Positions 3,057 to 60,804 of a stretch of DNA of 64,000 bases are shown piece by piece. The position numbers and the translations under genes were made by a program. Each line of letters starts with the position of its first letter. Position 1 is the first letter of the stretch. The notes under the pieces are model-generated. The model was not told the DNA's origin. It did no database searches and saw nothing but the letters and a program-made list of their open reading frames with translations. The DNA is taken from NCBI RefSeq assembly GCF_026013545.1, contig NZ_JAPDOG010000014.1, forward strand, positions 1 to 64,000, read 5' to 3'. The stretch comes from Defluviimonas salinarum (lineage in GTDB: Bacteria > Pseudomonadota > Alphaproteobacteria > Rhodobacterales > Rhodobacteraceae).

Positions 3057-3065
3057 TGCGAAAAA
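3057..3065 (-). promoter_or_regulatory. TTTTTCGCA motif
   Basis: Exact TTTTTCGCA on the minus strand, followed by TACT, about 50 nt upstream of the secreted repeat protein. Confidence 0.6.
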
Positions 3066-3084
3066 CATACCTGATGATTGCCCG

Positions 3085-3471
3085 TCAGTCCAGCCTCGGC
3101 AGCGCCGCCGGCGCCGGCCCCGCGGCAGGACAGGCGATCCGCCGCGCGATTGTCGCCGGACGCTCGAGGCCCTGCGCGGCATAGGCGCGATGGAAGGCCG
3201 GCCGGGTCGCCTCGCGCTCGCCATCGACGTCGATCAGCCGGCGCATCGCGAGACAGCCCTGGACGAAGCCGAGCCAGCGCGAGAGCTTGTCGAGAGGGAG
3301 TGCCAAGGCCTCCACCTCGCCCTGCCGGCAAAGCCAGGCAAGGTTGTCGAGCGAGAGGCGCGGATCGGCCGCGAATGGATCCCCTGTCCGATCCGTCGCC
3401 GCGATCACGCCGCCATAGCGGCGGAAGAGGTCGCGCGTGACCTCGCGCAGCATCGGCGCATCCGGAATCAA
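3085..3471 (-). CDS. hypothetical protein, 128 aa
   Basis: This unrecognised soluble protein is the third gene of a leftward cluster that starts with dut. Its ATG overlaps the stop of the gene upstream in an ATGA arrangement (3468-3471), so translation is coupled. The sequence is alpha-helical in appearance (for example LREVTRDLFRRYGG) with an alanine/proline-rich tail. Its placement behind dUTPase suggests co-regulation rather than a shown role in nucleotide metabolism. Confidence 0.6.
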   Translation of the reverse strand: MIPDAPMLREVTRDLFRRYGGVIAATDRTGDPFAADPRLSLDNLAWLCRQGEVEALALPLDKLSRWLGFVQGCLAMRRLIDVDGEREATRPAFHRAYAAQGLERPATIARRIACPAAGPAPAALPRLD

Positions 3472-3710
3472 GGGAGACCCGGCTGCGCCGCCGCCTCATC
3501 CACCTCCGCTCGCGCCGTGACCCGGTCGAGATACCTGTTCCAGGCGTCGCGGGACGAGGCGGCGGCGCAGGAAACATCTTCCTCTCCGACGAAGATCCGG
3601 TAGTGCCGGACACCACCGTTACTCGACAGCCGGCACGAGGCGTTCGGAACAAGAGCGAGCACCTGATCCTTCGCTTCCATGTATCCTTCGCCGGGACCTT
3701 TCTGGAACAT
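3468..3710 (-). CDS. hypothetical protein, 80 aa
   Basis: This is a small unrecognised protein between dut and the 128-residue protein. The ATG at 3710 has AGGA 7 nt upstream, close to the dut stop. An in-frame ATG at 3680, preceded by GAAGG, is an alternative that would give a 70-residue product. It contains the segment GVRHYRIFVGEEDVS, consistent with a small beta-sheet protein. It is coupled by ATGA overlap to the downstream gene. Confidence 0.6.
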   Translation of the reverse strand: MFQKGPGEGYMEAKDQVLALVPNASCRLSSNGGVRHYRIFVGEEDVSCAAASSRDAWNRYLDRVTARAEVDEAAAQPGLP

Positions 3711-3718
3711 GGCGCGTC

Positions 3719-4171
3719 CTACGCGACCCCGGTCGAGCCGAAGCCGCCGGTGCCGCGCATTGTCTCGTCGAGGCTCTCTGCCACCTCGAACACGCCCTGA
3801 ACGGCGGGTGCAACGATCATCTGCGCGATCCGGTCTCCGGTGCGGATCTCGAAAGGCTCGGAGCCGAGGTTGACGAGGATGACCCCGAGGGGACCCCGGT
3901 AGTCGCTGTCGATCGTTCCCGGTCCGTTGAGCACCGTGACGCCATGCTTCAGCGCGAGGCCGGAGCGCGGACGGATCTGCACCTCCCAGCCTTCCGGGAT
4001 CGCGAGACGCAGGCCGGTCGCCACGAGGCAGCGCGCTCCCGGCACGATCACCTGCGAAACATACCCGTCCGGCATCACCGCCCGGATATCTGCGCCCGCA
4101 GCACCCGGCGTCTCGTAGGCCGGGATTTGCGCGGCGGGATGGTCCTTCACGAAAAGGATCTTCGGTTTCAT
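3719..4171 (-). CDS. dut: dUTP diphosphatase (dUTPase), trimeric type
   Basis: This enzyme hydrolyses dUTP to dUMP and pyrophosphate, keeping uracil out of DNA and supplying the dTTP route. All five motifs of the homotrimeric family are present in order: [42 protein letters not shown] and the C-terminal [10 protein letters not shown] that closes over the site. The length, 150 residues, is typical, and the catalytic Asp in the GTIDSDYRG motif is intact. It heads a leftward cluster with two unknown genes. With tmk at 54.6 kb, the element carries two steps of thymidylate supply, a common theme in large phages and large plasmids. Confidence 0.95.
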
Positions 4172-4498
4172 TGAGGTCTAACTCCTACGTGGGCTTCCCG
4201 CACACATCCGCAGCGCCTGCGGCCAGTCCTGGCGCCTTTCGCGGACCCTTCTATCATGGATAATTCAGTCATGTAATATGTTTTTCGCATTGTTGATTTA
4301 CCGTCGCCCTCCGGAGGCGCGCGGCCCGCCAGGCTCCACCGGGAACCTCCTCCGTGTCGCGTCAGGCATCAAGGAAGCGGCTCGGGCCATCTGAAGTCTA
4401 TGGTCGCCCGGGTATATTGACCGGTGGCGAAAAACCTCTCGCAAGCTTTCGTAGCGTCATGTAGGAAGCGTCACGAATCAAAAGGTTCCCTTCCGCAC
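4172..4498. other. divergent intergenic region between dut and the 4499 gene
   Basis: There is no convincing gene in these 327 bases. They hold a plus-strand TTTTTCGCA at 4281-4289 in an AT-rich stretch and the reverse form GCGAAAAA at 4427-4434, so a motif pair flanks the space between dut and the rightward gene. Confidence 0.6.
4281..4289 (+). promoter_or_regulatory. TTTTTCGCA motif
   Basis: Exact copy followed by TTG, in an AT-rich setting (TAATATG before it). It lies about 210 nt upstream of the 4499 gene and, in reverse, 110 nt upstream of dut. Confidence 0.55.
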
Positions 4499-10592: not shown

Positions 10593-10748
10593 CAATCGGC
10601 TTCCCGATATCGTTAGCGGCATCCGGCCCACTCGGCCAGAGCTCTCGTCGCGGTTCGGGCCGCAGCGGGGTTTGATGTTGAGATTGTCCCGCCAATTTGC
10701 GAAAATCCTATTGCATGATGGGGTATCCTGTCTAGTATATGGAAATCT

Positions 10749-10757
10749 TTTTTCGCA
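10749..10757 (+). promoter_or_regulatory. TTTTTCGCA motif
   Basis: The copy is followed by TAGG and lies only 13 nt before the ATG of the 1063-residue protein, so transcription must begin within a few bases of the motif. Confidence 0.65.
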
Positions 10758-15613: not shown

Positions 15614-15622
15614 TGCGAAAAA
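15614..15622 (-). promoter_or_regulatory. TTTTTCGCA motif
   Basis: Exact minus-strand copy 14 nt before the ATG at 15600, directly abutting the ribosome site. An inverted copy lies at 15668-15676, so the two face each other about 45 nt apart. Confidence 0.65.
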
Positions 15623-15667: not shown

Positions 15668-15676
15668 TTTTTCGCA
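15668..15676 (+). promoter_or_regulatory. TTTTTCGCA motif (inverted partner)
   Basis: Exact plus-strand copy just beyond the stop of the muramidase gene, with no rightward gene after it. It forms an inverted pair with the copy at 15614. Confidence 0.5.
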
Positions 15677-16246: not shown

Positions 16247-16346
16247 CCTTCCTCCGGAAAACGGTAAATCATTGCGTTGGTCTCCGGCGCTCCGTTATGC
16301 GGCATGTGGCGAGAATAGGAGGCGGCGGAGCGCCAAGCAAGGAATG

Positions 16347-16364
16347 TTGCGAAAATTATTCGCA
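16347..16364. promoter_or_regulatory. near-palindromic motif pair
   Basis: TTGCGAAAA and TTATTCGCA are joined head to head with almost no spacer, the tightest inverted arrangement of the motif in the window. It lies upstream of the muramidase gene and at the left edge of the GTAAC-repeat region. Confidence 0.5.
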
Positions 16365-16899: not shown

Positions 16900-16907
16900 T
16901 TTTCGCA
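16900..16907 (+). promoter_or_regulatory. TTTTCGCA motif variant
   Basis: Four-T copy 61 nt before the 16968 gene. Confidence 0.45.
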
Positions 16908-16967
16908 GACCCATCCTATGCTCGCGGGATCCGGCAATCCGCCGGTTCATGATCGAGGTAAAGCGAA

Positions 16968-19744: not shown

Positions 19745-19778
19745 CGGGCACCTCCTCGGGGGAGCCTAATCGGCGCCC

Positions 19779-19792
19779 GCGAAAATGCGAAA
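19779..19792 (-). promoter_or_regulatory. double TTTCGCA/TTTTCGC motif
   Basis: Two overlapping motif variants on the minus strand, 35-48 nt upstream of the 19744 start and directly after a terminator hairpin. Confidence 0.5.
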
Positions 19793-20166: not shown

Positions 20167-20175
20167 TTTTTCGCA
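20167..20175 (+). promoter_or_regulatory. TTTTTCGCA motif
   Basis: Exact plus-strand copy followed by TTTTTTC. It is the last well-conserved copy before the tRNA array, 152 nt before the small gene at 20327 and 760 nt before the first tRNA. Confidence 0.55.
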
Positions 20176-20933: not shown

Positions 20934-21010
<77 letters not shown>

Positions 21011-21042
21011 GTCAACCTTTTGGATCGCAAGGAAAATCGATC

Positions 21043-21411
21043 ATGGGTAAACGAGACGCTAAGGGGTCGCTGGCCCCACGAAACGGCCATGTCGCCACGA
21101 TGATCCTTCGCAAGAAGGGCGCGCATGGCAAGACGGTGAAGGCGCTCCGCCGCGAGGCGCGGGTAACCTTCCTGAAACAGGTCTCGAGCGTTCATCCGAA
21201 CGGCGCCGCGGCGCCCTTCCGGCGAGCGCTCGGGATCCCGAGCGAGATGTCTGCCTTGGAAGGATCGGCGGCCCGCGGAGGGCCGGTTCGTTCCAGCGGG
21301 CGAAGCCGGCGCGCTGGAACGCGCCGGCGGGACCGGTCCTTCTTGGCCAGACATCGCCTCGATACCGTTTGCGGTCATGTGAATAATGTATTTCACATTC
21401 ATTTTTCGTAA
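21043..21411 (+). CDS. small basic hypothetical protein
   Basis: An ATG with AAGGA upstream opens a frame whose first 60 residues (MGKRDAKGSLAPRNGHVATM, then LRKKGAHGKTVKALRREARV) look like a real, very basic protein. The second half is less protein-like and spans a strong inverted repeat (GTTCCAGCG / CGCTGGAAC, about 21289-21320), which may be a terminator, so the gene might end earlier through an error or be a truncated copy. A nucleic-acid-binding role is plausible from charge alone. Confidence 0.4.
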   Translation: MGKRDAKGSLAPRNGHVATMILRKKGAHGKTVKALRREARVTFLKQVSSVHPNGAAAPFRRALGIPSEMSALEGSAARGGPVRSSGRSRRAGTRRRDRSFLARHRLDTVCGHVNNVFHIHFS

Positions 21412-21413
21412 CG
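21405..21413 (+). promoter_or_regulatory. weak motif copy (TTTTTCGTA)
   Basis: One-mismatch copy 40-48 nt before tRNA-Pro(CGG), the only motif-like site inside the first 10 kb of the array. Confidence 0.3.
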
Positions 21414-21452
21414 GCTTCGGGACCGGTTTTCTTTCCTTACGCCTTGCTTCTT

Positions 21453-21529
21453 CGGGGTGTGGCGCAGCCTGGTAGCGCACCTGGTTCGGGACCAGGGGGC
21501 CGGAGGTTCAAATCCTCTCATCCCGACCA
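21453..21529 (+). tRNA. tRNA-Pro(CGG)
   Basis: 77-nt cloverleaf, loop TTCGGGA, encoded CCA. It is similar to the Pro(TGG) gene and probably a duplicate that changed its anticodon. Confidence 0.95.
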
Positions 21530-21634
21530 AGGCGTAAGGAAAGAAAATTCGACCTTCCGGTGGACGGTCGAAAGACCCCGAAAGCCATCGGCAGATGGCG
21601 GGGCCGGAGGGTCAAGTCCTCCTGCCCATCGAAT

Positions 21635-21711
<77 letters not shown>

Positions 21712-21766
21712 ATCCTGCTGGTCGAGCGCTTCGGGCGTTCCCGGCGCTGCTTTCCCGCCCTGGCGA

Positions 21767-21843
21767 CGGAGCATGGCGCAGCCTGGTAGCGCGCCTGTCT
21801 GGGGGACAGGAGGCCGTGGGTTCAAATCCCGCTGCTCCGACCA
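21767..21843 (+). tRNA. tRNA-Pro(GGG)
   Basis: 77-nt cloverleaf, acceptor CGGAGCA / TGCTCCG, loop CTGGGGG, encoded CCA. It is the third proline isoacceptor within 1 kb. Confidence 0.95.
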
Positions 21844-21894
21844 GGCGAGGGAAGCGGAACGGTCCAGACAACACGCGCCGCGGTCACGGCGCAT

Positions 21895-21969
21895 GCGGGC
21901 ATGGTATAGTGGTTCGTGCCTCAGCCTTCCAAGCTGATGACGCGGGTTCGATTCCCGCTGCCCGCTCCA
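21895..21969 (+). tRNA. tRNA-Gly(TCC)
   Basis: 75-nt cloverleaf, loop CTTCCAA, discriminator T, encoded CCA. A 6-bp hairpin (21875-21892) ends 2 nt before it. Confidence 0.95.
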
Positions 21970-21978
21970 GAAACACAC

Positions 21979-22054
21979 GCGTCGGTAGCTCAGCCGGTAG
22001 AGCACCGGATTGAAGATCCGGGTGTCGCAGGTTCAATTCCTGCCCGTCGCACCA
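21979..22054 (+). tRNA. tRNA-Phe(GAA)
   Basis: 76-nt cloverleaf, loop TTGAAGA, encoded CCA. The acceptor has a T-T mismatch at pair 4-69. It starts 9 nt after tRNA-Gly. Confidence 0.9.
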
Positions 22055-22113
22055 GATGCCGCGCCAAGGCGCGCCGGGTCCGGCCCCCGTTCAAAAGGTC
22101 GACGAAACACAGT

Positions 22114-22198
22114 GCGGGTGTGGTGAAATCGGTAGACACCCCGGATTTAGGTTCCGGTGCCGCAAGGCGTGGGGGTTCAAGTCCCTCCACCCGCACCA
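22114..22198 (+). tRNA. tRNA-Leu(TAG)
   Basis: 85-nt class II tRNA with a long variable arm (TGCCGCAAGGCGT), loop TTTAGGT, acceptor GCGGGTG / CACCCGC, encoded CCA. Confidence 0.95.
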
Positions 22199-22202
22199 GG
22201 TT

Positions 22203-22279
22203 GCTCGCGTAGCTCAGTGGATGAGAGCGTCGCGCTACGAACGCGAAGGCCGGAGGTTCGAATCCTTCCGCGAGCGCCA
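22203..22279 (+). tRNA. tRNA-Arg(ACG)
   Basis: 77-nt cloverleaf, loop CTACGAA; A34 would be edited to inosine to read CGN codons. Encoded CCA. It starts 4 nt after tRNA-Leu. Confidence 0.95.
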
Positions 22280-22312
22280 ATCCCCTCCTGCCCGGGGTAA
22301 TGGGCAGGTCAT

Positions 22313-22397
22313 GGTGGCGGGACGGGACGGTAACGTGACGGACTGCAACTCCGTAGCCCCGAGAAGGGACCCGGTTCGACTCCGGGCGCCACCTCCA
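22313..22397 (+). tRNA. tRNA-Cys(GCA) with an unusually long variable arm
   Basis: 85 nt. Acceptor GGTGGCG / CGCCACC, discriminator T as in all tRNA-Cys, anticodon loop CTGCAAC. The variable region is about 15 nt (AG CCC CGAGAA GGG A) and can form its own stem, whereas tRNA-Cys normally has 4-5 nt there. The D arm is short. A hairpin at 22287-22308 ends 4 nt before it. Confidence 0.85.
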
Positions 22398-22548
22398 ACC
22401 TACCCGGCGCGGCTCCGAGAAGGATGCCCCGGGAGCGGATCAAAGATTACGCCGGCAGTGAGCCCGGCCGCCACCATGGGGGCGGCTGGAACCGAAGCTC
22501 CGACATCGCGCATGTTCCGGGTCGCTCCGGCTGCCGGCTCCAGTTTAC

Positions 22549-22624
22549 GGGCCCTTAGCTCATCCGGGAGAGCGCCTGCCTTGCAAGCAGGAGGCGGTCG
22601 GTTCAAGTCCGACAGGGTCCACCA
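22549..22624 (+). tRNA. tRNA-Ala(TGC)
   Basis: 76-nt cloverleaf, loop CTTGCAA, encoded CCA. Acceptor GGGCCCT / AGGGTCC with a G-T at pair 3-70, the alanine identity element. Confidence 0.95.
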
Positions 22625-22722
22625 ATTCGCGGCCGAGGCCGCAGGAGACGTTCGTCGCTTCGGCCGGGCCCGGCCGAGGGTCCAGCCCGGGACTGCAGCC
22701 CGGGAGAGATGGATAGCGGCGA

Positions 22723-22790
22723 GAGAGCGTAGCTCAGATGGTAGAGCATCCTTAAGGAGGGTCGCGGGTTCGAGCCCCGCCGCTCAGGCA
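22723..22790 (+). pseudogene. tRNA remnant without an anticodon
   Basis: A good D arm (GCTC, 8-nt loop, GAGC) and T arm (GCGGG TTCGAGC CCCGC) are present, but only 16 nt lie between them instead of 23, reading ATCCTTAAGGAGGGTC. TCCTT and AAGGA are complementary with no loop, so no anticodon can be presented. The acceptor 3' end (CGCTCAGGCA) also lacks pairs 1-2 and CCA. Confidence 0.7.
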
Positions 22791-22817
22791 ATTCCAGACG
22801 ACATCGGGCGCTTCTCC

Positions 22818-22907
22818 GGGCAGGTGGCAGAGCGGTCGATTGCAGCGGTCTTGAAAACCGCCGGGCCCGAGAGGGCTCCGTGGGTTCGAACCCCACCCTG
22901 CCCGCCA
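22818..22907 (+). tRNA. tRNA-Ser(TGA)
   Basis: 90-nt class II tRNA, loop CTTGAAA, long variable arm, acceptor GGGCAGG / CCTGCCC, discriminator G, encoded CCA. Confidence 0.95.
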
Positions 22908-22929
22908 TTTCCCGGCCGCCCCGGACGAT

Positions 22930-23006
22930 GGACGCTTAGCTCAGCTGGTTAGAGCACCTGACTTTTAATCAGGGGGTCCTGGGTTCGAGTCCCAGAGCGT
23001 TCACCA
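22930..23006 (+). tRNA. tRNA-Lys(TTT)
   Basis: 77-nt cloverleaf, loop CTTTTAA, acceptor GGACGCT / AGCGTTC, encoded CCA. It is the only lysine tRNA here. Confidence 0.95.
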
Positions 23007-23034
23007 CCTTTCACCCCCGCCGACGGGGTCCAGT

Positions 23035-23108
23035 ACCGCTTTAGCTCAATGGGAGAGCATCGCGTTGTGGCCGCGAGGATCCAGGTTCAACTCCTGGGGG
23101 CGGGACCA
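23035..23108 (+). tRNA. tRNA-His(GTG), alphaproteobacterial type
   Basis: Loop TTGTGGC. The discriminator is A73 and there is no templated G-1 to C73 pair. Loss of G-1 with A73 is the known peculiarity of tRNA-His in Alphaproteobacteria. Pair 1-72 is an A-G mismatch. A hairpin at 23015-23028 ends 6 nt before it. Confidence 0.85.
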
Positions 23109-23149
23109 TTTCACCTCACATCCGAGCCGCCCCGAGGGGGCGTCTTCGA

Positions 23150-23226
23150 TGCGCGGTGGAGCAGTTGGTCAGCTCGGATGGCTCATAACCATCAGGTCGC
23201 GGGTTCGAGTCCCGCCTGCGCAACCA
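23150..23226 (+). tRNA. tRNA-Met(CAT), initiator-like
   Basis: 77 nt, loop CTCATAA, encoded CCA. The D stem GAGC/GCTC gives the A11-U24 pair typical of initiators. Pair 1-72 is T-A rather than the C-A mismatch of most bacterial initiators, and the anticodon stem has only two of the three G-C pairs. It is probably an initiator derivative. Confidence 0.8.
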
Positions 23227-23415
23227 CTATCGAGGCTCTGAGTCATGTTGGTGACGGGGTGCTTGCCTGAGTCCGGCAGACCGGATCCGCGAGCGTCCAA
23301 GGTCATGGCCAGGGGATCAGCCGGCGCCCGCGAGGGCAGCGGGGTATCACCGCCCTGCCGGCACCAGTTCTGCTGCAACCCGCCAGATGTGCCGGGTTGC
23401 GGCGAAACCGTCCGT

Positions 23416-23499
23416 TGGCCCGTGGCGGTATAGCAAGTCCCTCCGGACCGGAGGGGGTCACCGGCCGGGTTCCAACCCGGGCCAGGCTAACGGGTCGCC
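23416..23499 (+). pseudogene. tRNA-like element, degenerate (Val-GAC-like)
   Basis: A perfect 7-bp acceptor (GGCCCGT / ACGGGTC), discriminator G and CCA enclose 84 nt. A 5-bp stem CCCTC/GAGGG carries a 7-nt loop CGGACCG that places GAC at the anticodon but has G instead of U33. A T-arm-like hairpin CCGGG TTCCAA CCCGG is followed by 9 extra bases. No normal D arm is seen. It is either a decayed tRNA or a tRNA mimic. Confidence 0.5.
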
Positions 23500-23547
23500 A
23501 ATTCAACATCTTCCCCGCGCTGAAAAGACGGGGATTGCCGGCTTCAT

Positions 23548-23702
23548 GGGGCCATAGCTCAGCCGGGAGAGCGCCTGCATGGCATGCAGGAGGGCTTTCG
23601 ACGGTTTGCCATCGGCAAATGAAGGCTCCGGTGGAGCGTTCAAGGAAGAAGGCGCGCCGGCCATGCCGACGCAGGAAGGGTTCGATCCCCCCGGCTCCAC
23701 CA
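23548..23702 (+). tRNA. tRNA-Ala(GGC) interrupted by about 79 nt in the variable region
   Basis: Acceptor GGGGCCA, D arm and anticodon arm (CCTGC ATGGCAT GCAGG) are canonical. The T loop and the 3' end (CGGCTCC A CCA) are also present, but the gene is 155 nt long. The extra bases, about 23592-23675, contain a 6-bp hairpin TTTGCC-ATC-GGCAAA and further GC stems. The T stem is reduced to about 4 bp. It may be an insertion-disabled tRNA or one with a novel extra domain. Confidence 0.6.
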
Positions 23703-23889
23703 ATCACGGGAATGGCCCTTCGGGGCGGATCCCGGTGCCGCTGTCTGAAGGGAATACCCGGTAAGCGGCGGAAGCCCCGGACAAGCCCGGCATCGCACCG
23801 ATGCCGGGCGGGGCACCTTTCCGATGCCGAACCCATCTTCGGCATCCGACACGATCTCCCTCCCGCCGCCCCCAGGGTGTTCGGGATGT

Positions 23890-23965
23890 TTCCCAGTAGC
23901 TCAGTTGGTAGAGCATCCGGCTGTTAACCGGAGTGTCGCAGGTTCGAGCCCTGCCTGGGGAGCCA
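23890..23965 (+). tRNA. tRNA-Asn(GTT)
   Basis: 76-nt cloverleaf, loop CTGTTAA, acceptor TTCCCAG / CTGGGGA, encoded CCA. Confidence 0.95.
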
Positions 23966-24122
23966 ACAATGAAACGATCCCCAGGATCGTTTCAGTCTTT
24001 CCCCGGGCGGGCGGGACACGGCGGGGAGCCGGATGCGCAACGCGCACCGGCGACCATGCCGCCGTCTCGAGCCTGTTCGGGGGTTTGATTTCCGCCATCC
24101 GGACCGGCTCCGGGCGCGGACT

Positions 24123-24198
24123 GCCCTTGTAGCTCAGCCGGTAGAGCAGCGGTTTTGTAAACCGAAGGTCGGCGGTTCGATCCCGTCCGGGGGCGCCA
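24123..24198 (+). tRNA. tRNA-Thr(TGT)
   Basis: 76-nt cloverleaf, loop TTTGTAA, acceptor GCCCTTG / CGGGGGC, encoded CCA. Pair 27-43 is a G-A mismatch. Confidence 0.9.
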
Positions 24199-24356
24199 GT
24201 TTCAGATCCAGAGCAGGAGTGACAACCTTCAATGTCGAAAACGGATATCCCATTCACCCGCGCTACGAGCGCGTGAAGACGGACGGATGCCATCACGGCA
24301 GCCGGACCGCCCGGGCTTCGGCCGCTGAGCCGGATCAGCGGCCATCCACCTTACGC

Positions 24357-24444
24357 GGAGCGGGGGCAGGATGGTAATGCAGCGGATTGCTAATCCGTAG
24401 GGCCCGCAAGGGCTCACCGGGTTCGATTCCCGGTCGCTCCGCCA
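24357..24444 (+). tRNA. tRNA-Ser(GCT)
   Basis: 88-nt class II tRNA, loop TTGCTAA, long variable arm, encoded CCA. A 9-bp hairpin (24320-24343) lies 13 nt before it. Confidence 0.95.
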
Positions 24445-24466
24445 GTTTTCGGACCATCGGTCCTGT

Positions 24467-24542
24467 AGGGGTGTAGCTCAGCTGGTAGAGCGCCGGTCTC
24501 CAAAACCGGATGTCGCGGGTTCGAATCCTGTCGCCCCTGCCA
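24467..24542 (+). tRNA. tRNA-Trp(CCA)
   Basis: 76-nt cloverleaf, loop CTCCAAA, acceptor AGGGGTG / CGCCCCT, discriminator G, encoded CCA. Hairpin GGACC-ATC-GGTCC ends 3 nt before it. Confidence 0.95.
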
Positions 24543-24630
24543 ATTCACCGGCCGCCTCGCGGGGCGGTCATCCTCCTGTCCCGGCCGCCAGCCGGACCAG
24601 GCTAATCGAAGTCGGGAAAGGAGTATCATC

Positions 24631-25005
24631 ATGCTGACTTTCGAGGATGTGATCGAAGAGCATCGCAAGGCCGTCGGCGCCGACAAGGTTCACGTGAGCC
24701 TCGGCGACGAGGCGACGCCGGAGGGTCTGCGCGACGTGCTCGCGAAGACCCGGGTAATCGGTTCGCGCTACGCGGCCTATACCGACGCCGAGAAAGCGGA
24801 AGCCGAGGTCGCGCGGCTGCGCGACGAGCTTCGCAAGATCCGGGTCATGACCGGCAATGCCGAGTTGAGCCCCGACGAGCGGCTCGACAAGATCTTCTTC
24901 CTGGCCGACATGGTTCCGGACGTCGATCTCGACAAGGACATCGCCTGGATGGAGGCCGAGCGCCGCCGCAAGGGGATCGCCCTTCCCTATCCCGAAACGG
25001 CCTGA
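24631..25005 (+). CDS. hypothetical protein, 124 aa
   Basis: The ATG has a strong AAAGGAG site. The product is acidic and largely helical, with a probable coiled coil at about residues 50-75 (TDAEKAEAEVARLRDELRKIRVM). No family is recognised. It lies between tRNA-Trp and tRNA-Tyr with no motif of its own, so it should be expressed from the array transcript. Confidence 0.7.
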   Translation: MLTFEDVIEEHRKAVGADKVHVSLGDEATPEGLRDVLAKTRVIGSRYAAYTDAEKAEAEVARLRDELRKIRVMTGNAELSPDERLDKIFFLADMVPDVDLDKDIAWMEAERRRKGIALPYPETA

Positions 25006-25070
25006 GGGCCGGACGGAAAACTCCGGCCCGGGGAAACCCGGACCGGATTGCCCCTATCGCGTTTTCCCGT

Positions 25071-25157
25071 GGGCCGGTGGCATGAGTGGTTGATGGCACC
25101 GGACTGTAAATCCGGCTCCGAAAGGACGCGCTGGTTCGAATCCAGCCCGACCCACCA
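25071..25157 (+). tRNA. tRNA-Tyr(GTA)
   Basis: 87-nt class II tRNA, loop CTGTAAA, long variable arm, acceptor GGGCCGG / CCGACCC with a C-A mismatch at 4-69, encoded CCA. Confidence 0.92.
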
Positions 25158-25170
25158 GAAAGCGCGATCT

Positions 25171-25245
25171 CGTCTCGTAGCTCAGCGGTAGAGCGGACGG
25201 CTGATAACCGTCAGGCCGGAAGTTCGATTCTTCCCGGGACGACCA
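25171..25245 (+). tRNA. tRNA-Ile(GAT)
   Basis: 75-nt cloverleaf, loop CTGATAA, acceptor CGTCTCG / CGGGACG, discriminator A, encoded CCA. Confidence 0.95.
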
Positions 25246-25279
25246 TGCTACGCACGGCGGCAGCGACATGCCGTCAGAT

Positions 25280-25365
25280 GCCCGGGTGGTGAAACTGGCA
25301 GACACACCATCTTGAGGGGGTGGCGGCTTCGCGCCGTGCGGGTTCAAGTCCCGCCCCGGGCACCA
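25280..25365 (+). tRNA. tRNA-Leu(GAG)
   Basis: 86-nt class II tRNA, stem CCATC/GGTGG, loop TTGAGGG, long variable arm, acceptor GCCCGGG / CCCGGGC, encoded CCA. Confidence 0.93.
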
Positions 25366-25485
25366 GGTATCTGCGCGCGATCCCTTCGAACGGGGCGCGC
25401 GCTCCGCGCAGCCATGGCTGCGCCATGGCTCCGGGCGCGGCGAGCCGGCAAATCGCGGCGCAACCCATTTCGGACCGCATCTCAT

Positions 25486-25575
25486 GGAGGGATGGCAGAG
25501 CGGTCGATTGCACCGTCTTGGAAAGGCGGCGGACCTTCACGGGTCCCGCGGGTTCAAATCCCGCTCCCTCCGCCA
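25486..25575 (+). tRNA. tRNA-Ser(GGA)
   Basis: 90-nt class II tRNA, loop TTGGAAA, acceptor GGAGGGA / TCCCTCC, encoded CCA. The 15 nt before it are identical to those before tRNA-Ser(CGA) at 26760. Confidence 0.95.
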
Positions 25576-25613
25576 GTTTCGATCAGCAGCATTCAGCCAT
25601 GAAGGAGATCCAG

Positions 25614-26054
25614 ATGAGCCTGCTCGAGAAGATCCGCGCCGACGCCCTTGCCGCACGCAAGGCGAAGGCGCCCGAGGCAGGGGTCCTGGTCACGCTGAAG
25701 GGCGAGATCGACACGAAGACGAAGCTCTTCAACCCGGCCCGCGAGATGACCGATGACGAGGTCGTCGCGGTCGTGAAGAAGTTCCTCAAGGGCATCGAGG
25801 AGACGATCGTGGCGCTCGAGGGCGGCCGCAACCCCGACGCTCTCGCGAAGGTCATCGCGGAAAAACGGGTCCTCGAGGGCCTTCTTCCGGCCCAGATGAC
25901 GGCGCCGGACATCGAGGCCTTCGCCAGGGCGAGGATTGCCGCCGGCGCCGATCTCGGCGCGGTCATGGCGGCCCTGAAGGCGGAGCATTCAGGCCTCTAT
26001 GACGGCAAGCTCGCCTCCGGCATCGTTCGCGGCCTCCTGGCCGCGGCGGCATGA
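25614..26054 (+). CDS. GatB/YqeY-domain protein
   Basis: This is a 146-residue protein with the YqeY pattern: an N-terminal helix (MSLLEKIRADALAARKAKAP), a central region, and LLPAQMTAPDIEAFARARI (YqeY proteins typically have a YLP-QLS-EEI stretch here). YqeY shares its fold with the tail domain of the GatB subunit of the tRNA-dependent amidotransferase and is thought to bind tRNA; its own function is not settled. The ATG has a GAAGGAG site. Its position between tRNA-Ser and tRNA-Thr makes a tRNA-linked role attractive, but this is inference. Confidence 0.75.
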   Translation: MSLLEKIRADALAARKAKAPEAGVLVTLKGEIDTKTKLFNPAREMTDDEVVAVVKKFLKGIEETIVALEGGRNPDALAKVIAEKRVLEGLLPAQMTAPDIEAFARARIAAGADLGAVMAALKAEHSGLYDGKLASGIVRGLLAAAA

Positions 26055-26137
26055 AATCTCCCGCCTGATGGCCAGGCGGATCCGGGAGCGGAAGACAGGT
26101 CTTTGGCGTGACAGCACATCGAGGACCCCGGAAAATG

Positions 26138-26212
26138 CTGCAGTGGCTCAGTGGTAGAGCACGTCCTTGGTAAGGACGGGGTCGCGGGTTCGATCCCCGC
26201 CTGCAGCACCAA
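26138..26212 (+). tRNA. tRNA-Thr(GGT)
   Basis: 75-nt cloverleaf, loop TTGGTAA, perfect acceptor GCTGCAG / CTGCAGC, encoded CCA. Confidence 0.95.
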
Positions 26213-26303
26213 TTCGAAGGAAAGCCTGCGATGAAGGCGATCCTTTTCACCAGGCGGTGGTAGGCATCCTTCAGGAAGTGGTGGCTCGGAAGAGAGGATC
26301 AAC

Positions 26304-26717
26304 ATGTTCAAAAGTCAAGGCCGCATACCCGTCACAAACGAGACCGTCCTGAACATGGTCTCCAATCATGACGGTTTTCACCTGAGCTACAACCCGATGG
26401 TCCGCGACTACGGATGCCAGACCACGGCTATCGTGCTTGGCAATCATGCCTTGTTCTTCGTGCTGAATGGCGATCACAGGAATCCGCTCTCCCAGGCCGT
26501 GGAACGGGGCGGGAAGCAGGCGGTCATCGATTACTTCATCGAGAATGTCGGTCAGGCCAATAGTCTCAGCGACCATACCCATATCTTCAAGGATGCGACC
26601 TTTCTTGAAAGAGACAAGTATGCCGCAGAGCATCTCGGCCATGAGAATATCGCCCGTATCAAGCAGGCGCTGAAGGAGCTCGAGGACGCCGGGCCGGAAG
26701 CGAGCCCGGAGCCCTGA
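26304..26717 (+). CDS. hypothetical protein, 137 aa
   Basis: The ATG follows GAGAGGATC. This is a soluble protein of unknown family; the middle (ALFFVLNGDHRNPLSQAV) and the helical, acidic C terminus (IKQALKELEDAGPEASPEP) are the main landmarks. Codon use is a little less GC-biased than that of its neighbours. It sits between tRNA-Thr and tRNA-Ser without its own motif. Confidence 0.65.
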   Translation: MFKSQGRIPVTNETVLNMVSNHDGFHLSYNPMVRDYGCQTTAIVLGNHALFFVLNGDHRNPLSQAVERGGKQAVIDYFIENVGQANSLSDHTHIFKDATFLERDKYAAEHLGHENIARIKQALKELEDAGPEASPEP

Positions 26718-26759
26718 GCCCGGGTCTTCGCCAAACACGGATATCGGACCGCATCTCAT

Positions 26760-26849
26760 GGAGGGATGGCAGAGCGGTCGATTGCGCCGGTTTCGAAAAC
26801 CGGAGGACGTGAAAGCGTCCCGTGGGTTCGAACCCCACTCCCTCCGCCA
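26760..26849 (+). tRNA. tRNA-Ser(CGA)
   Basis: 90-nt class II tRNA, loop TTCGAAA, long variable arm, encoded CCA. The 5' flank and first 26 nt match tRNA-Ser(GGA), which points to duplication. Confidence 0.95.
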
Positions 26850-26930
26850 GTTTCCCCTACCGGCCGCGCGCCGGCAAGGAAGGGCTTGGCTCCCTGAGCC
26901 GATCAGGGGGCACGATCCTCACGGATCGCT

Positions 26931-27005
26931 GCGGGCGTAGCTCAGTGGTAGAGCGCCACCTTGCCAAGGTGGATGTCGCGAGTTCGACTCTCGTCGCCCG
27001 CTCCA
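26931..27005 (+). tRNA. tRNA-Gly(GCC)
   Basis: 75-nt cloverleaf, loop TTGCCAA, discriminator T, encoded CCA. Hairpin CGATCC-TCAC-GGATCG ends 2 nt before it. Confidence 0.95.
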
Positions 27006-27105
27006 GTTTCCAGGGCCGCAGCCCAGCCGCGCGATCAGCTCGCGGCAACGCTTCGGCCGGCCAGACATGACGCCGGCGCCGCAAGGCGGTCACCGGCATT
27101 CCTTC

Positions 27106-27181
27106 GGGGGCTTAGCTCAGCTGGGAGAGCGCCTGTTTTACACACAGGATGTCGGCGGTTCGATCCCGTCAGCCCCTACCA
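27106..27181 (+). tRNA. tRNA-Val(TAC)
   Basis: 76-nt cloverleaf, loop TTTACAC, acceptor GGGGGCT / AGCCCCT, encoded CCA. Confidence 0.95.
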
Positions 27182-27243
27182 TCAACCGGCCCTTCTCCCA
27201 CAGGGCAACAGACAGCGCCGGCCGCTCCCGCGGCCGGTCCTCT

Positions 27244-27318
27244 TGGGGCGTGGCCAAGCGGTAAGGCAGCGGTTTTTGGTACCGCGATACGCAGGTTCGA
27301 ATCCTGCCGCCCCAGCCA
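27244..27318 (+). tRNA. tRNA-Gln(TTG)
   Basis: 75-nt cloverleaf, loop TTTTGGT, acceptor TGGGGCG / CGCCCCA, encoded CCA. An 8-bp hairpin (27218-27237) ends 6 nt before it. Confidence 0.95.
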
Positions 27319-27353
27319 ACACCTCCGGGCTCTCCCATGACTGCCCGGATCAT

Positions 27354-27428
27354 GGCCCATTCGTCTATCGGTCAGGACGTCAGGTTTTCAACCTGAAAAG
27401 AGGGGTTCGATTCCCCTATGGGCTACCA
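27354..27428 (+). tRNA. tRNA-Glu(TTC)
   Basis: 75-nt cloverleaf, loop TTTTCAA, acceptor GGCCCAT / ATGGGCT, encoded CCA. Hairpin CCGGGC/GCCCGG ends 5 nt before it. Confidence 0.95.
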
Positions 27429-27541
27429 TCTTCCACGGACCTCGCGATGCGCTACGCCTGCTCGGGAGGTTTTTGCCGACCCTGGTTTTCACCTGGAGCC
27501 TGTACGCTGACACGAGGCAGCCCAGTCGAGGGAGACGACTT

Positions 27542-29145: not shown

Positions 29146-29176
29146 ACGACGGCGGGCGGCGGCGCCGCCCGCCAAT

Positions 29177-46532: not shown

Positions 46533-46541
46533 TTTTTCGCA
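46533..46541 (+). promoter_or_regulatory. TTTTTCGCA motif
   Basis: Exact copy (preceded by two more T) 51 nt before the probable start of the next rightward gene. Confidence 0.6.
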
Positions 46542-47378: not shown

Positions 47379-47387
47379 TTTTTCGCA
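47379..47387 (+). promoter_or_regulatory. TTTTTCGCA motif
   Basis: Exact copy 41-49 nt before the 47428 gene, preceded by CCTTTCGG. Confidence 0.6.
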
Positions 47388-49690: not shown

Positions 49691-49699
49691 TGCGAAAAT
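49691..49699 (-). promoter_or_regulatory. TGCGAAAA motif (reverse form)
   Basis: TGCGAAAAT 57-65 nt before the 49756 gene, followed by an AT-rich stretch (GTTATGATAG). Confidence 0.4.
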
Positions 49700-50570: not shown

Positions 50571-50579
50571 TTTTTCGCA
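50571..50579 (+). promoter_or_regulatory. TTTTTCGCA motif
   Basis: Exact copy followed by TATGC, 42-50 nt before the 50621 gene. Confidence 0.62.
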
Positions 50580-50904: not shown

Positions 50905-50913
50905 TGCGAAAAA
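50905..50913 (-). promoter_or_regulatory. TGCGAAAAA motif (reverse form)
   Basis: Exact reverse copy. With the direct copy at 50961 it makes an inverted pair 47 nt apart in front of galU. Confidence 0.5.
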
Positions 50914-50960: not shown

Positions 50961-50969
50961 TTTTTCGCA
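50961..50969 (+). promoter_or_regulatory. TTTTTCGCA motif
   Basis: Exact copy whose end is 2 nt from the CGGAGA ribosome site and 14 nt from the ATG of galU. Confidence 0.65.
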
Positions 50970-54526: not shown

Positions 54527-54535
54527 TTTTTCGCA
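54527..54535 (+). promoter_or_regulatory. TTTTTCGCA motif
   Basis: Exact copy 19 nt from the helicase start (in reverse to it) and 93 nt before tmk. Confidence 0.55.
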
Positions 54536-54579
54536 CTTTACGCCAGAGTATCGTGCTGGTAATTGTTTATCAAACACCA

Positions 54580-58501: not shown

Positions 58502-58510
58502 TTTTTCGCA
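58502..58510 (+). promoter_or_regulatory. TTTTTCGCA motif
   Basis: Exact copy 16 nt from the start of the 58486 gene (reverse to it), followed by TTTTTACGCC. Confidence 0.55.
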
Positions 58511-58567: not shown

Positions 58568-58576
58568 TTTTTCGCA
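58568..58576 (+). promoter_or_regulatory. TTTTTCGCA motif
   Basis: Exact copy followed by TATCAT, 72 nt before the TelA-like gene. Confidence 0.6.
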
Positions 58577-58608
58577 TATCATATTGAAGCGACCGGTTTC
58601 CATGTGTA

Positions 58609-58622
58609 CGATCTGCGAAAAT
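58609..58622 (-). promoter_or_regulatory. ACGATCTGCGAAAA element
   Basis: A 14-nt sequence containing the reverse motif. The same 14 nt recur at 60791-60804 before the AAA+ gene of the same operon, at a similar distance (26-29 nt) from the start codon. Confidence 0.55.
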
Positions 58623-58647
58623 CCGTATTCAAGCAGGAGAAACACGC

Positions 58648-59703
58648 ATGTCCTTCGAGACCCAGATCCAGGAGAGCCAGCGGCAGGTGGCCGAGTTCCA
58701 AGCCCGCGTCCGGGACGTGTCCGCGGCGATGGATCGCAGCCAGGCGGCCGCGACGCTCGATATCGAGAACGCCACGCTCGAGGAAGTCCACGCCCATTCG
58801 GCGACGATGAACGCCAACATCGCCGAGCTGATCATGGGGCTCGACGACGTGACCTCGAAATTCTCGCGGGACTTCGACGAGATGCGTTCGAAGACGACCA
58901 CCGAGAAGCTCATCGGCTTCTTCGCCAAGGGCAAGTCCGAGGTCATGCGCCAGGAGCGGCTGAAGACCGCCTCGATCGACGACAAGCTGCAGGACCTGAT
59001 CGGCAAGTCCGACGTGATCGTGAAGCTCCTCGATGGCCAGCTTGCGGTCCTGATCGACCACAAGGGCCGGGTCGAGACGAACCTTACCGAAACGCTTGCC
59101 GAGCGCGAAACGGTCGTGGCCGAGCTCGAAACCCTGCGTGCCGACATCCAGGACCTGGATCCGAAGGTCATCGAGATCGAGAACCGCATCAGTGTCGAGC
59201 AGGACGCGGCGGCGCGCACCCGGCTCGAGAGTGAGCTTGCCGATCTCAACAAGCGCTACAACGCGATGGTGCAGGACGAGCAGGTGAAGCTCGCGAAATC
59301 CCAGACGCTCGAGCGCTACATCGAGAAGGGCAAGACCTGGGTCGACAGCCTGCAGAACCAGGCAGCGACGCAGATGGTGCTGATCAACAAGCTGCAGACC
59401 GACACCAAGCAGCGGGTCGTGCTCTACGACGCGCTCACGAAATCCCTCAAGACCGCGCAGCAGCAGGACGTGGCGCACCGGATCAACGAGATCGGCGTGA
59501 AGACAGACCAGGAGGCCCAGGCCGCCATGGCAGGGATCGGCTCGGCCACCAACCGCCGCATGGCCGAGATGATGGAGGCCCATGAGGGGCACATGGTCTT
59601 CGCGAGGAAGGTGCTCGAGGAGAAGGCCAAGGCCGACGAGCGCTTCGCCCGCCGCTTTGCCGCCATCGTCGAACAGCACGACAAGAACGCCTACGGCGCG
59701 TGA
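58648..59703 (+). CDS. TelA-like toxic anion resistance family protein
   Basis: This is a 351-residue cytoplasmic protein, helical throughout. Its core (AELIMGLDDVTSKFSRDF, KLIGFFAKGKSEVMRQERLK, KSDVIVKLLDGQL) has the feel of TelA/KlaA proteins, which occur in tellurite-resistance and other stress or phage-resistance clusters together with vWA and kinase modules. A weak motif pair and AGGAG precede the ATG. It overlaps the next gene (TGATG), so it heads a four-gene operon. Confidence 0.7.
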   Translation: MSFETQIQESQRQVAEFQARVRDVSAAMDRSQAAATLDIENATLEEVHAHSATMNANIAELIMGLDDVTSKFSRDFDEMRSKTTTEKLIGFFAKGKSEVMRQERLKTASIDDKLQDLIGKSDVIVKLLDGQLAVLIDHKGRVETNLTETLAERETVVAELETLRADIQDLDPKVIEIENRISVEQDAAARTRLESELADLNKRYNAMVQDEQVKLAKSQTLERYIEKGKTWVDSLQNQAATQMVLINKLQTDTKQRVVLYDALTKSLKTAQQQDVAHRINEIGVKTDQEAQAAMAGIGSATNRRMAEMMEAHEGHMVFARKVLEEKAKADERFARRFAAIVEQHDKNAYGA

Positions 59704-60791
59704 TGGAGCGGATTGACCTCACCCGCGGCTTCGCGCAGATCGGCGAGGATGCCGATCTGCGCGCCTATCTCGCCCTCATCGCCTCGCTCGCCGACGCGGT
59801 TCCGGGCGCGATGGAGGAATGCGCGCACCGCGAGGATCTCATGCCCGAGGAATCCGGGGAGCTCCGTGCCCTGACATGGCTCTGGGTGAATGGCCTCAAG
59901 GCCATCTCGCTCAAATACGCGATGGCGGCGCGGTCGGGCGCCGAAGGCGCTTGCCTCACGATCGACCGGACCGGCAGCGGCCTGCCGATCTGGCAGGAGG
60001 TCGTGACCATGGCGCAGGAAGCCGAGGCGGCGGAAGCATCGCTCGCGGAAATGCCGTCGGCCGGGGAGATCCGCGCCGCGATGCTGCGCCAGATCCTGCG
60101 CGACCAGGTCTCACCGGCCCGCCTGCAGCATGCGATGAGCCAGCGCCTCTACCGCGAAGCCCTCGCCGAGAATCCGGTCCTGCCGCCGAAGACGCGGCTT
60201 GCGATCCAGCCCCTTGGCCAGGTGGCCGCTCGCCGGGAACGGTGCCTCCTGAGCTGGGCGATCGTCGACGTCCAGTCAAACCTGCCCGTCATCTACCTGA
60301 TGGACCTCCACCATCCCGCCGGGCGCCCCCTCGCGCAGGAGGACCCGCGGCTTTTGAAAATCAGGGCGCTGCTTTTCGGCATGTCGGATCCTGATACCGA
60401 TCTGGCCCTGATCGCGGAGAGCCTCGACGAGGCTTATGCGGATCTTCACCCCAAGCAGCTGCGCCGCTTCGTTCTTGGCCCCTTCCATACGCCCGTTTTC
60501 ACCGCCTCGAAGTCACCGATCCTCGAGGTCCTGCACGCCACGGGACCCTCGGCAGCAAGGGAATGGGCGCTCGGGATCCGCTGCGAGACGATCAGGGCGG
60601 CCCGCGAAACCGTGCAAGCCGGGGTCTTCAGTTCGACCTCCCGGCAGGTCTACGCCGCCCCGGTCAGCCGCCAGTCCTACCTGATGACGCCCCTGCCCTT
60701 CCAGATGATCTGCGACAGCGACGGGCCGGACTTCACCGGCATCGCCAAGCATGTCGTCGGCTCCGATGGCCGCGTCACGACCAGGGTCTGA
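59703..60791 (+). CDS. hypothetical protein, 362 aa
   Basis: The ATG overlaps the TelA-like stop. It is an unrecognised protein with helical N-terminal half and a beta-rich C-terminal half (LLSWAIVDVQSNLPVIYLMD, then FHTPVFTASKSPILEVLH). No transmembrane or catalytic motif is seen. Its fixed place between TelA-like and AAA+ genes suggests it is part of the same complex. Confidence 0.65.
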   Translation: MERIDLTRGFAQIGEDADLRAYLALIASLADAVPGAMEECAHREDLMPEESGELRALTWLWVNGLKAISLKYAMAARSGAEGACLTIDRTGSGLPIWQEVVTMAQEAEAAEASLAEMPSAGEIRAAMLRQILRDQVSPARLQHAMSQRLYREALAENPVLPPKTRLAIQPLGQVAARRERCLLSWAIVDVQSNLPVIYLMDLHHPAGRPLAQEDPRLLKIRALLFGMSDPDTDLALIAESLDEAYADLHPKQLRRFVLGPFHTPVFTASKSPILEVLHATGPSAAREWALGIRCETIRAARETVQAGVFSSTSRQVYAAPVSRQSYLMTPLPFQMICDSDGPDFTGIAKHVVGSDGRVTTRV

Positions 60792-60804
60792 CGATCTGCG
60801 AAAA
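60791..60804 (-). promoter_or_regulatory. ACGATCTGCGAAAA element
   Basis: The second copy of the 14-nt element at 58609. It overlaps the stop of the preceding gene and lies 30 nt before the AAA+ start. Confidence 0.55.

What the first reader, a model, noticed from the sequence alone, without database searches (positions are those of the whole stretch)
3057..60804. A short motif, TTTTTCGCA, in nearly every intergenic gap: candidate replicon-specific promoter or operator
About 27 exact or near copies (listed as features) sit in gaps, in both orientations, and almost none in genes. Copies at 10749, 15614, 50961 and 33861 end 13-18 nt before a start codon or tRNA 5' end, leaving room only for the ribosome site. 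So transcription should start within about 10 nt of the motif, which would then occupy the -10 region. Many others lie 40-55 nt before starts, and no constant -35 box was seen. Reverse copies and inverted pairs (15614/15668, 50905/50961, 16347/16364) could mark operators. A shared, unusual promoter across unrelated genes is typical of an element with its own sigma factor, RNA polymerase or master regulator.
Basis: partly seen in the sequence, partly recalled or inferred. Interest (0 to 1): 0.85.

Follow-up and report, generated by a model that had tools for sequence, protein, structure and literature searches.

The report
Megaplasmid-wide promoter and operator site
A large conjugative plasmid of an alphaproteobacterium carries about 150 copies of one short DNA word in the gaps before its genes, which looks like the docking site of a plasmid-made master switch that helps build some promoters and covers others, so the plasmid seems to run its own gene-control network inside its host.

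Summary
TTTTTCGCA occurs 16 times in the window (0.27 expected). The 8-mer TTTTCGCA occurs 26 times, 24 outside genes. The word marks seven contigs, about 475 kb, that carry an I-type (Dot/Icm-like) conjugation system: 101 copies in 470.6 kb, against at most 24 in the rest of the 5.0 Mb genome. It lies in gaps where transcription starts: 40 of 57 divergent gaps, 1 of 46 convergent gaps.

It is not a -10 box. Same-direction gaps hold 41 sense and 54 antisense copies, and none of the 54 has a -10 at the promoter spacing. Most copies therefore look like operators. A sense subset sits in a plasmid promoter class: TTTTC exactly 12 bp upstream of TAnnnT (34 hits, 1.7 expected). That class lacks the TTG -35 box of 31 other promoter-like sites. 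The geometry is that of the T4 MotA box.

Best reading: sites of one plasmid-encoded dual regulator that replaces the -35 box when correctly placed and covers promoters elsewhere. The leading candidate is a GcrA-like protein (HTH plus zinc ribbon) encoded in the densest cluster of copies. The regulator is inferred, not shown. Related plasmids showed no such motif.

The parts
3057..3065 (-). TTTTTCGCA copy, 48 nt before gene 1425-3008 (-)
4281..4289 (+). TTTTTCGCA copy; with TACCGT 12 bp after TTTTC it also matches the TTTTC-N12-TAnnnT pattern (4282-4304), 209 nt before gene 4499
10698..10705 (-). TTTTCGCA copy in the divergent gap 10545/10770
10749..10757 (+). TTTTTCGCA copy, 12 nt before the start of the 1063-aa gene
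15614..15622 (-). TTTTTCGCA copy, inverted pair with 15668, 13 nt before gene 15292-15600 (-)
15668..15676 (+). TTTTTCGCA copy, antisense, between genes 15292-15600 (-) and 15680-16246 (-)
16312..16340 (-). TTG-N20-TAnnnT promoter-like site of gene 15680-16246 (-)
16348..16355 (-). TTTTCGCA copy just upstream of the promoter-like site 16312-16340
16900..16922 (+). TTTTC-N12-TAnnnT promoter-like site (TTTTCGCA N9 TATGCT) of gene 16968-17783
19763..19785 (-). TTTTC-N12-TAnnnT promoter-like site (TTTTCGCG) of gene 19193-19744 (-)
20167..20175 (+). TTTTTCGCA copy in the gap before the tRNA array (first tRNA at 20934)
20934..33964 (+). array of 36 tRNA genes with small genes between; motif copies at 30748 and 33862 inside it and 20167 before it
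27486..27508 (+). TTTTC-N12-TAnnnT promoter-like site (TTTTCACC, no CGCA) of gene 27542-27811
30748..30756 (+). TTTTTCGCA copy, 45 nt before gene 30802
33862..33870 (+). TTTTTCGCA copy, 18 nt before tRNA-Met 33889
46533..46541 (+). TTTTTCGCA copy, 65 nt before gene 46607
47379..47387 (+). TTTTTCGCA copy, 40 nt before gene 47428
49691..49698 (-). TTTTCGCA copy, antisense, before gene 49756
50571..50579 (+). TTTTTCGCA copy, 41 nt before gene 50621
50905..50913 (-). TTTTTCGCA copy, inverted pair with 50961
50961..50969 (+). TTTTTCGCA copy, 14 nt before the nucleotidyltransferase gene 50984
54527..54535 (+). TTTTTCGCA copy in a divergent gap; antisense to and about over the predicted start site of the promoter-like site 54545-54573
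54545..54573 (-). TTG-N20-TAnnnT promoter-like site of the PIF1-like helicase gene 53219-54508 (-)
58502..58510 (+). TTTTTCGCA copy before gene 58648
58568..58576 (+). TTTTTCGCA copy upstream of the promoter-like site 58584-58612
58584..58612 (+). TTG-N20-TAnnnT promoter-like site of gene 58648-59703
58614..58621 (-). TTTTCGCA copy, antisense, over the predicted start site of the promoter-like site 58584-58612
60797..60804 (-). TTTTCGCA copy, antisense, 29 nt before the AAA gene 60834

Best explanation
TTTTTCGCA (extended WYNNTTTTTCGCAWWYY) is the binding site of a regulator encoded by this I-type conjugative megaplasmid. Shown by sequence statistics: the site is concentrated in promoter-bearing gaps of the plasmid contigs, lies in both orientations, and in a sense subset stands exactly 12 bp upstream of a TAnnnT -10 box in promoter-like sites that lack a TTG -35 box. 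Inferred: in those promoters the regulator takes over the job of the -35 box by touching the host sigma-70 polymerase, as MotA does in phage T4. At ordinary TTG-N17-TAnnnT plasmid promoters, copies over the start site or upstream of the -35 act as operators, mostly repressing. One protein could do both: when held by RNA polymerase it would need only TTTTC, when alone the full site. Leading candidate (inferred, about 35%): the 130-aa GcrA-like protein at C3:137740-138132, an HTH domain of the sigma-70 co-activator GcrA joined to a zinc ribbon, encoded between a putative replication origin and a primase.
For: Replicon specificity: 101 exact copies in 470.6 kb of seven contigs, 125 in 5.0 Mb, reversed control 13; congener without the icmB-like gene 15 vs 13. 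Promoter gaps: TTTTCGCA in 40 of 57 divergent, 83 of 266 same-direction and 1 of 46 convergent gaps, 28 of 183 copies coding. No sense bias: 41 sense, 54 antisense. Unbiased scan of 5- to 7-mers 5-21 bp before TAnnnT upstream of 320 genes: best hit TTTTC gap 12, 34 of 222, 1.66 expected, corrected P 7.6e-29; 35 intergenic copies of this pattern in 131 kb of strand against 2 in 810 kb of coding strand; found on all seven contigs. -35 substitution: TTG in register in 1 of 34 TAnnnT boxes with TTTTC, and in 30 of 257 without. TTG-N20-TAnnnT is itself over-represented (31; 12 at gap 19, 6 at 21, 1-10 at other gaps from 15 to 26). Around those 31 sites I count 27 copy-site pairs (10 sense, 17 antisense; a few copies count for two overlapping sites), 7 of them antisense over the start site. 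GcrA-like gene: PF07750 34.8 bits, cut-off 26.9 (26.1, or 28.9 with neighbours); GcrA chains in PDB E 9.8e-07; 5 copies of TTTTCGCA in about 650 bp around it, the densest cluster; four homologues in three related genomes, each within 4 kb of an icmB-like gene. The T4 MotA box lies 12 +/- 1 bp from the -10 and replaces the -35 (PMC2988021, passages).
Against: No transcription start, binding or expression data exist. The TTTTC promoter element and the TTTTCGCA site are not identical: only 14 of 35 spaced hits have the full TTTTCGCA, and A or G rather than T mostly precedes TTTTC in promoters, so two factors may be involved. Related plasmids with the GcrA-like protein (G059, G014, G209) show no TTTTCGCA or TTTTC-N12-TAnnnT excess; little DNA was available for G014 and G209. 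Three of the four homologues score below the Pfam GcrA cut-off (17.5, 20 and 25.7 bits; the fourth 32). The cluster at the gcrA-like gene sits partly in a long gap (733 bp, four copies) and by my hand estimate is only mildly unusual for its length. Sense and antisense distances to the gene start do not differ clearly (KS P 0.065). 162 of 320 upstream regions have neither a promoter pattern nor the site. The chromosome sample has few TTTTC words (36), so 0 of 36 there is weak evidence on its own. G014 has a mild genome-wide excess of the 9-mer, 117 vs 48, that I did not explain; its plasmid contig has 1.
Confidence: 0.5

Rival explanations
1. Pure operator: a plasmid master repressor (in the style of KorB of RP4 or C1 of P1, recalled) covers promoters plasmid-wide, and the TTTTC-N12-TAnnnT promoters belong to another factor whose element only shares TTTTC.
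For: Both orientations, positions over start sites and upstream of -35; promoter TTTTC does not need CGCA (10 of 35 spaced hits are TTTTC not followed by G).
Against: A fixed gap and the loss of TTG in the same promoters point to a positive role of the shared letters; the full TTTTCGCA has the -10 at +17 in 14 of 100 sense or divergent copies and TTTTCGC without A in 7 of 30, against 10 of 148 for TTTTC not followed by G.
Confidence: 0.25
2. The plasmid's own RpoH-like sigma factor (C3:27927-28862) reads the motif as its promoter.
For: A sigma gene with regions 2 and 4 lies on a motif contig and has a motif copy in the gap before it at C3:28913.
Against: Sigma factors keep about 16-18 bp between -35 and -10 (recalled); here the conserved TTTTC is 12 bp from the -10. 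Antisense copies have no -10 at that spacing (0 of 54). The Pseudorhodobacter turbinis plasmid with a 46% homologue shows no TTTTCGCA excess (77 vs 101 controls).
Confidence: 0.12
3. Nucleoid protein or xenogeneic silencer site, for example for the plasmid's GapR.
For: A GapR-family protein is encoded on the replicon; the site has an A-tract.
Against: Such proteins read AT-richness or shape (recalled), not a strict 8-mer; the site is all but absent from convergent gaps (1 of 46).
Confidence: 0.07
4. Segregation, transfer or uptake signal (parS, KOPS or uptake-sequence type).
For: Many dispersed copies on one replicon.
Against: Mostly promoter gaps; a -10 box at a fixed distance; 28 of 183 copies in coding DNA, which is 86% of the contigs.
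Confidence: 0.03

Closest known systems
Bacteriophage T4 middle promoters (MotA box, sigma appropriation by AsiA and MotA)
   Same: A short asymmetric word 12 bp upstream of a sigma-70 -10 box takes the place of the -35 element; the word may deviate from consensus in active promoters (PMC2988021, passages).
   Different: Here the word also lies antisense and elsewhere in promoter gaps; the carrier is a conjugative plasmid; MotA or AsiA homologues were not searched for; the letters differ (TTTTC(GCA) against TGCTT).
CtrA of Caulobacter
   Same: A DNA-bound regulator at the -35 position activates most of its promoters, and its sites can also repress (PMC11264516, title and start of abstract in the listing only).
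   Different: CtrA is chromosomal and its site is different (TTAA-N7-TTAA, recalled); no CtrA-like gene was sought on the replicon.
Mycobacteriophage L5-type stoperators
   Same: 20 to 30 asymmetric sites of one element-encoded repressor spread over the element (PMC6550527, passages).
   Different: Stoperators are oriented with transcription and most are not at promoters; here orientation is free and most sites are in promoter gaps.
GcrA of Caulobacter and relatives
   Same: The candidate shares the GcrA DNA-binding domain. GcrA binds sigma-70 region 2 and activates (PMC7403470, passages). In Agrobacterium the 250 bp before gcrA hold 6 GANTC motifs (PMC11514494, passages), somewhat as the plasmid gene has TTTTCGCA copies around it.
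   Different: The plasmid protein has a C-terminal CxxC..CxxC ribbon instead of the GcrA tail, and the putative site is not the methylated GANTC.
Plasmid-wide regulators such as AcaCD of IncC plasmids
   Same: A plasmid-encoded activator acts on several promoters of the element and of an island it mobilises (PMC7826253, passages).
   Different: AcaCD belongs to the FlhDC family; I did not search for such a gene here.

Membership tests
T4-type MotA box promoter | word about 12 bp upstream of a TAnnnT/TATAAT -10 box | tested here: met
   TTTTC-N12-TAnnnT 34 hits vs 1.66 expected
T4-type MotA box promoter | no sigma-70 -35 element | tested here: met
   TTG in register in 1 of 34
T4-type MotA box promoter | MotA and AsiA proteins | not tested
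   no search with those families was made
Stoperator system | sites oriented with transcription | tested here: not met
   41 sense, 54 antisense in same-direction gaps
Stoperator system | most sites away from promoters | tested here: not met
   155 of 183 copies intergenic; convergent gaps 1 of 46
GcrA family (candidate protein) | GcrA DNA-binding domain | tested here: met
   PF07750 34.8 bits, cut-off 26.9; GcrA PDB chains E about 1e-06 over positions 21-72 of the profile
GcrA family (candidate protein) | C-terminal sigma-interacting domain of GcrA | tested here: not met
   Pfam match ends at profile position 66 of 155; a different zinc ribbon follows
GcrA family (candidate protein) | binds sigma-70 and its DNA site | not testable with these tools
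   needs biochemistry
Sigma-factor-specific promoter | -35 and -10 about 16-18 bp apart, one orientation | tested here: not met
   conserved TTTTC 12 bp from -10; 54 antisense copies without a -10 at the spacing

The most novel reading that the evidence does not exclude
A conjugative megaplasmid has turned the alphaproteobacterial cell-cycle co-activator GcrA into its own sequence-specific sigma-70 appropriator: a plasmid GcrA-like protein with a zinc ribbon reads TTTTCGCA, without needing methylation, replaces the -35 box at dozens of plasmid promoters and blocks others, with sites also at a plasmid tRNA set, tmRNA and SmpB. Related plasmids carry the same protein with other, still unknown sites.
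Probability: 0.3. Interest if true: 0.88.

Novelty: new variant of a known kind. Interest (0 to 1): 0.72.

Why it matters
If true, a plasmid runs a private promoter code on its host's RNA polymerase, with the geometry of a phage take-over system, and perhaps does so with a relative of a host cell-cycle factor. That would link plasmid gene control to GcrA biology, add a plasmid case of -35 replacement by a DNA-bound activator, and explain how an element of about 475 kb with its own tRNAs, tmRNA, SmpB and sigma factor stays coordinated. The predictions are sharp: a fixed 12 bp gap, a known word, one small candidate protein.

Tried and rejected
Motif as -10 box: rejected by orientation balance and by promoter-like sites that lie upstream of start-proximal copies. 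Antisense promoters: rejected, 0 of 54 antisense copies have TAnnnT at +17. Apparent excess of TAnnnT overlapping antisense copies (8 of 89): discarded, since the flank of the motif predicts about that many by hand estimate. Own multi-subunit RNA polymerase: the Rpb1 family matches only contig C40. Other motifs in related plasmids: TAACGG-type words in G014 and G102 were clustered locally and not enriched genome-wide (45 vs 117 and 109 vs 251 controls); TATAACGATA occurs a few times in G342 and G171 and stays unexplained. Relatives in viral contigs: none with three proteins. A megablast of 20 kb of C3 against plasmids: no match. GcrA-like relatives at E <= 1e-10 in 390 genomes of the order: only the own genome; the related genomes would have passed that limit, so they cannot have been in that sample. 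Structure prediction of the GcrA-like protein was poor (pLDDT 67, pTM 0.41) and is not used. The 351-aa gene 58648-59703 was tried as a replicon marker but is common (169 of 394 family genomes, own included). Regex hunts for GapR found nothing, so its gene is not placed.


Full report
What is there. The window is bases 1-64,000 of contig C6 of a 5.0 Mb, 88-contig draft genome. The tools hide its genus and family; the best match of its plasmid sigma factor among plasmids is in Pseudorhodobacter turbinis, Rhodobacterales. TTTTTCGCA occurs 16 times in the window against 0.27 expected. The 8-mer TTTTCGCA occurs 26 times, 24 outside genes.

Replicon specificity. In the whole genome the 9-mer has 125 copies and the reversed control 13. 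In the pieces I had fetched, 101 of 108 copies are on seven contigs: C3, C6, C14, C20, C32, C38, C50; the other 7 are on C1 (3), C28 (2), C36 and C43. The seven were chosen by this density, so density alone cannot prove that they are one replicon; the tests below do not depend on that choice. C3 carries an IcmB/DotO-like ATPase (C3:130838-133915). Its relatives on plasmids include one annotated IcmB, and in the two records I opened it sits among DotG, DotH, IcmL and IcmT genes. DotI/IcmL, DotD and TraI-type T4SS families are among the 140 mid-size replicon proteins scanned. So this is an I-type conjugative megaplasmid of about 475 kb, probably one molecule. A genome of the same genus without a match to that ATPase has 15 copies against 13 controls. 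G014 has 117 against 48 in 5.6 Mb, but its plasmid contig C35 has 1; this mild excess was not followed.

Where the copies lie. With my own gene caller on the seven contigs, the 8-mer has 183 copies, 28 of them coding. It is in 40 of 57 divergent gaps, 83 of 266 same-direction gaps and 1 of 46 convergent gaps of 20 bp or more. Within same-direction gaps 41 are sense and 54 antisense. So the site marks places where transcription starts, and its direction is free: the mark of an operator, not of a -10 box. The aligned copies give WYNNTTTTTCGCAWWYY with no other strongly conserved column.

A plasmid promoter class. Sense copies showed an excess of TAnnnT exactly 17 nt from the start of TTTTCGCA: 13 of 82 against 0.7 at other offsets. 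An unbiased scan of all 5- to 7-mers at gaps 5-21 before TAnnnT, upstream of 320 genes, put TTTTC with gap 12 first: 34 of 222, 1.66 expected, corrected P 7.6e-29. The pattern has 35 intergenic copies in 131 kb of strand and 2 in 810 kb of coding strand. The logo is TTYCSGRTTTTCGC-N10-TAnnnT, with the -10 ending 23-39 nt before the start codon in 24 of 34. In 297 upstream regions of chromosomal contigs there were 0 in 36 TTTTC words, against 34 in 223 on the plasmid. No antisense copy (0 of 54) and 1 of 28 coding copies had the -10.

The -35 question. The plasmid also has ordinary promoter-like sites, TTGCnn-N17-TAnnnT: 31 at that gap, 12 one base shorter, 6 one base longer, 1-10 at other gaps tried. 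The classes hardly overlap: one site has both TTG and TTTTC in register. So TTTTC stands in for the -35 box. Around the 31 TTG sites I count 27 copy-site pairs of the 8-mer, 10 sense and 17 antisense, a few copies counting for two overlapping sites; 7 antisense copies are over the start site and 7 upstream of the -35. Of 29 upstream regions with a TTG site 23 have a copy, of 258 with neither pattern 96.

Mechanism. Shown: an orientation-free site in promoter gaps, and a fixed-gap, -35-replacing element that shares its core. Inferred: one regulator, acting by contact with host sigma-70 where the gap is right and by occlusion elsewhere. The looser word in promoters (TTTTC often without CGCA) fits a protein held by RNA polymerase; the T4 review says that MotA tolerates deviations and binds its box better with AsiA and polymerase (PMC2988021, passages). 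It fits two separate factors as well.

Who binds. Pfam scans of 282 of 332 small and mid-size replicon proteins (142 plus 140; the two calls print only 25 of 40 and 25 of 56 families) showed several HTH_3-type proteins, GapR and GcrA. The GcrA-like gene, C3:137740-138132, stands beside a chromosomal gcrA that the assembly splits over C23 and C13. It lies in the densest cluster of copies: 137496, 137607, 137682, 137979 and 138143. Upstream are CGTAACGC repeats in AT-rich DNA, perhaps an origin; downstream is a protein with the DnaG zinc ribbon. Homologues with the same HTH and ribbon are in G209 (48%, and a second copy 42%), G059 (43%) and G014 (42%), each within 4 kb of an icmB-like gene; in the three that I printed, the next gene begins like a primase, read by eye. 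Three of these four score below the Pfam GcrA cut-off. Against the candidate: these relatives lack the motif, so its site would have to change between plasmids. The replicon's RpoH-like sigma factor is the main other candidate for the promoter class.

Literature. Seen as passages: PMC7403470, PMC7987155, PMC6550527, PMC11514494, PMC2988021, PMC7826253; as abstract and outline: PMC10272220; as listing only: PMC11264516. Searches for megaplasmid with GcrA (13 papers, 10 listed), GcrA with conjugative plasmid (3 papers), the word TTTTTCGCA (90 papers, 15 listed) and megaplasmid with tRNA array, sigma factor and type IV secretion (27 papers, 12 listed) showed nothing on this system in titles or abstract starts; that is no proof of absence, and two GcrA papers that I asked for are not held.

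Verdict. A real, replicon-specific regulatory site with an unusual, well-supported promoter geometry; the regulator remains to be identified.

Noticed in passing
window 20934-33964 and 49502-49579: 36 tRNA genes in one array plus a tRNA-Arg further on (37 by ARAGORN and by Rfam); ARAGORN's tmRNA at 22530-23043 overlaps tRNAs and has no Rfam match. A cyanobacterial megaplasmid tRNA operon under a repressor is known (TrcR, PMC10272220, abstract and outline).
   Followed up: partly
L032:7668-8023 (C38) and C20:10077-10502: The replicon has its own alphaproteobacterial tmRNA (251.7 bits) and a second SmpB, each with motif copies upstream (C38:7586; C20:9942 and 10020). The other SmpB is on C16.
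   Followed up: partly
L006:7930-8862 (C3:27927-28862): RpoH-like sigma factor on the replicon, 46% identical to one on the Pseudorhodobacter turbinis 1.58 Mb plasmid.
   Followed up: partly
L011:17180-17480 (C3:137180-137480): Repeated CGTAACGC and GTGTTAC words in AT-rich DNA upstream of the gcrA-like gene; possible iteron origin.
   Followed up: no
L006:12523-14882 (C3:32523-34882): Serine-resolvase-like gene followed by a TnpB-like gene, an IS607-type pair by eye; a motif copy overlaps the resolvase start (C3:32527).
   Followed up: no
G342:C98:25707-25725, 47657, 76972; G171:C7:18646-18663: TATAACGATA-like words, in places doubled 12 bp apart; one pair lies at matching places near the icmB-like gene of two related plasmids.
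   Followed up: no
window 58648-64000: The 351-aa gene at the head of this AAA/DUF6638 cluster is 80% identical to a copy on C56 and occurs in 169 of 394 family genomes: chromosomal-type cargo on the plasmid.
   Followed up: partly
L005:4370-5809 (C3), L006:9146-9754 (C3), window 54628-55257: Adenylosuccinate-synthetase relative, a thymidine-kinase-like gene (by eye) and a thymidylate kinase; Thy1, dUTPase, PhoH and RNA ligase families are among replicon proteins: a phage-like nucleotide and RNA kit.
   Followed up: no
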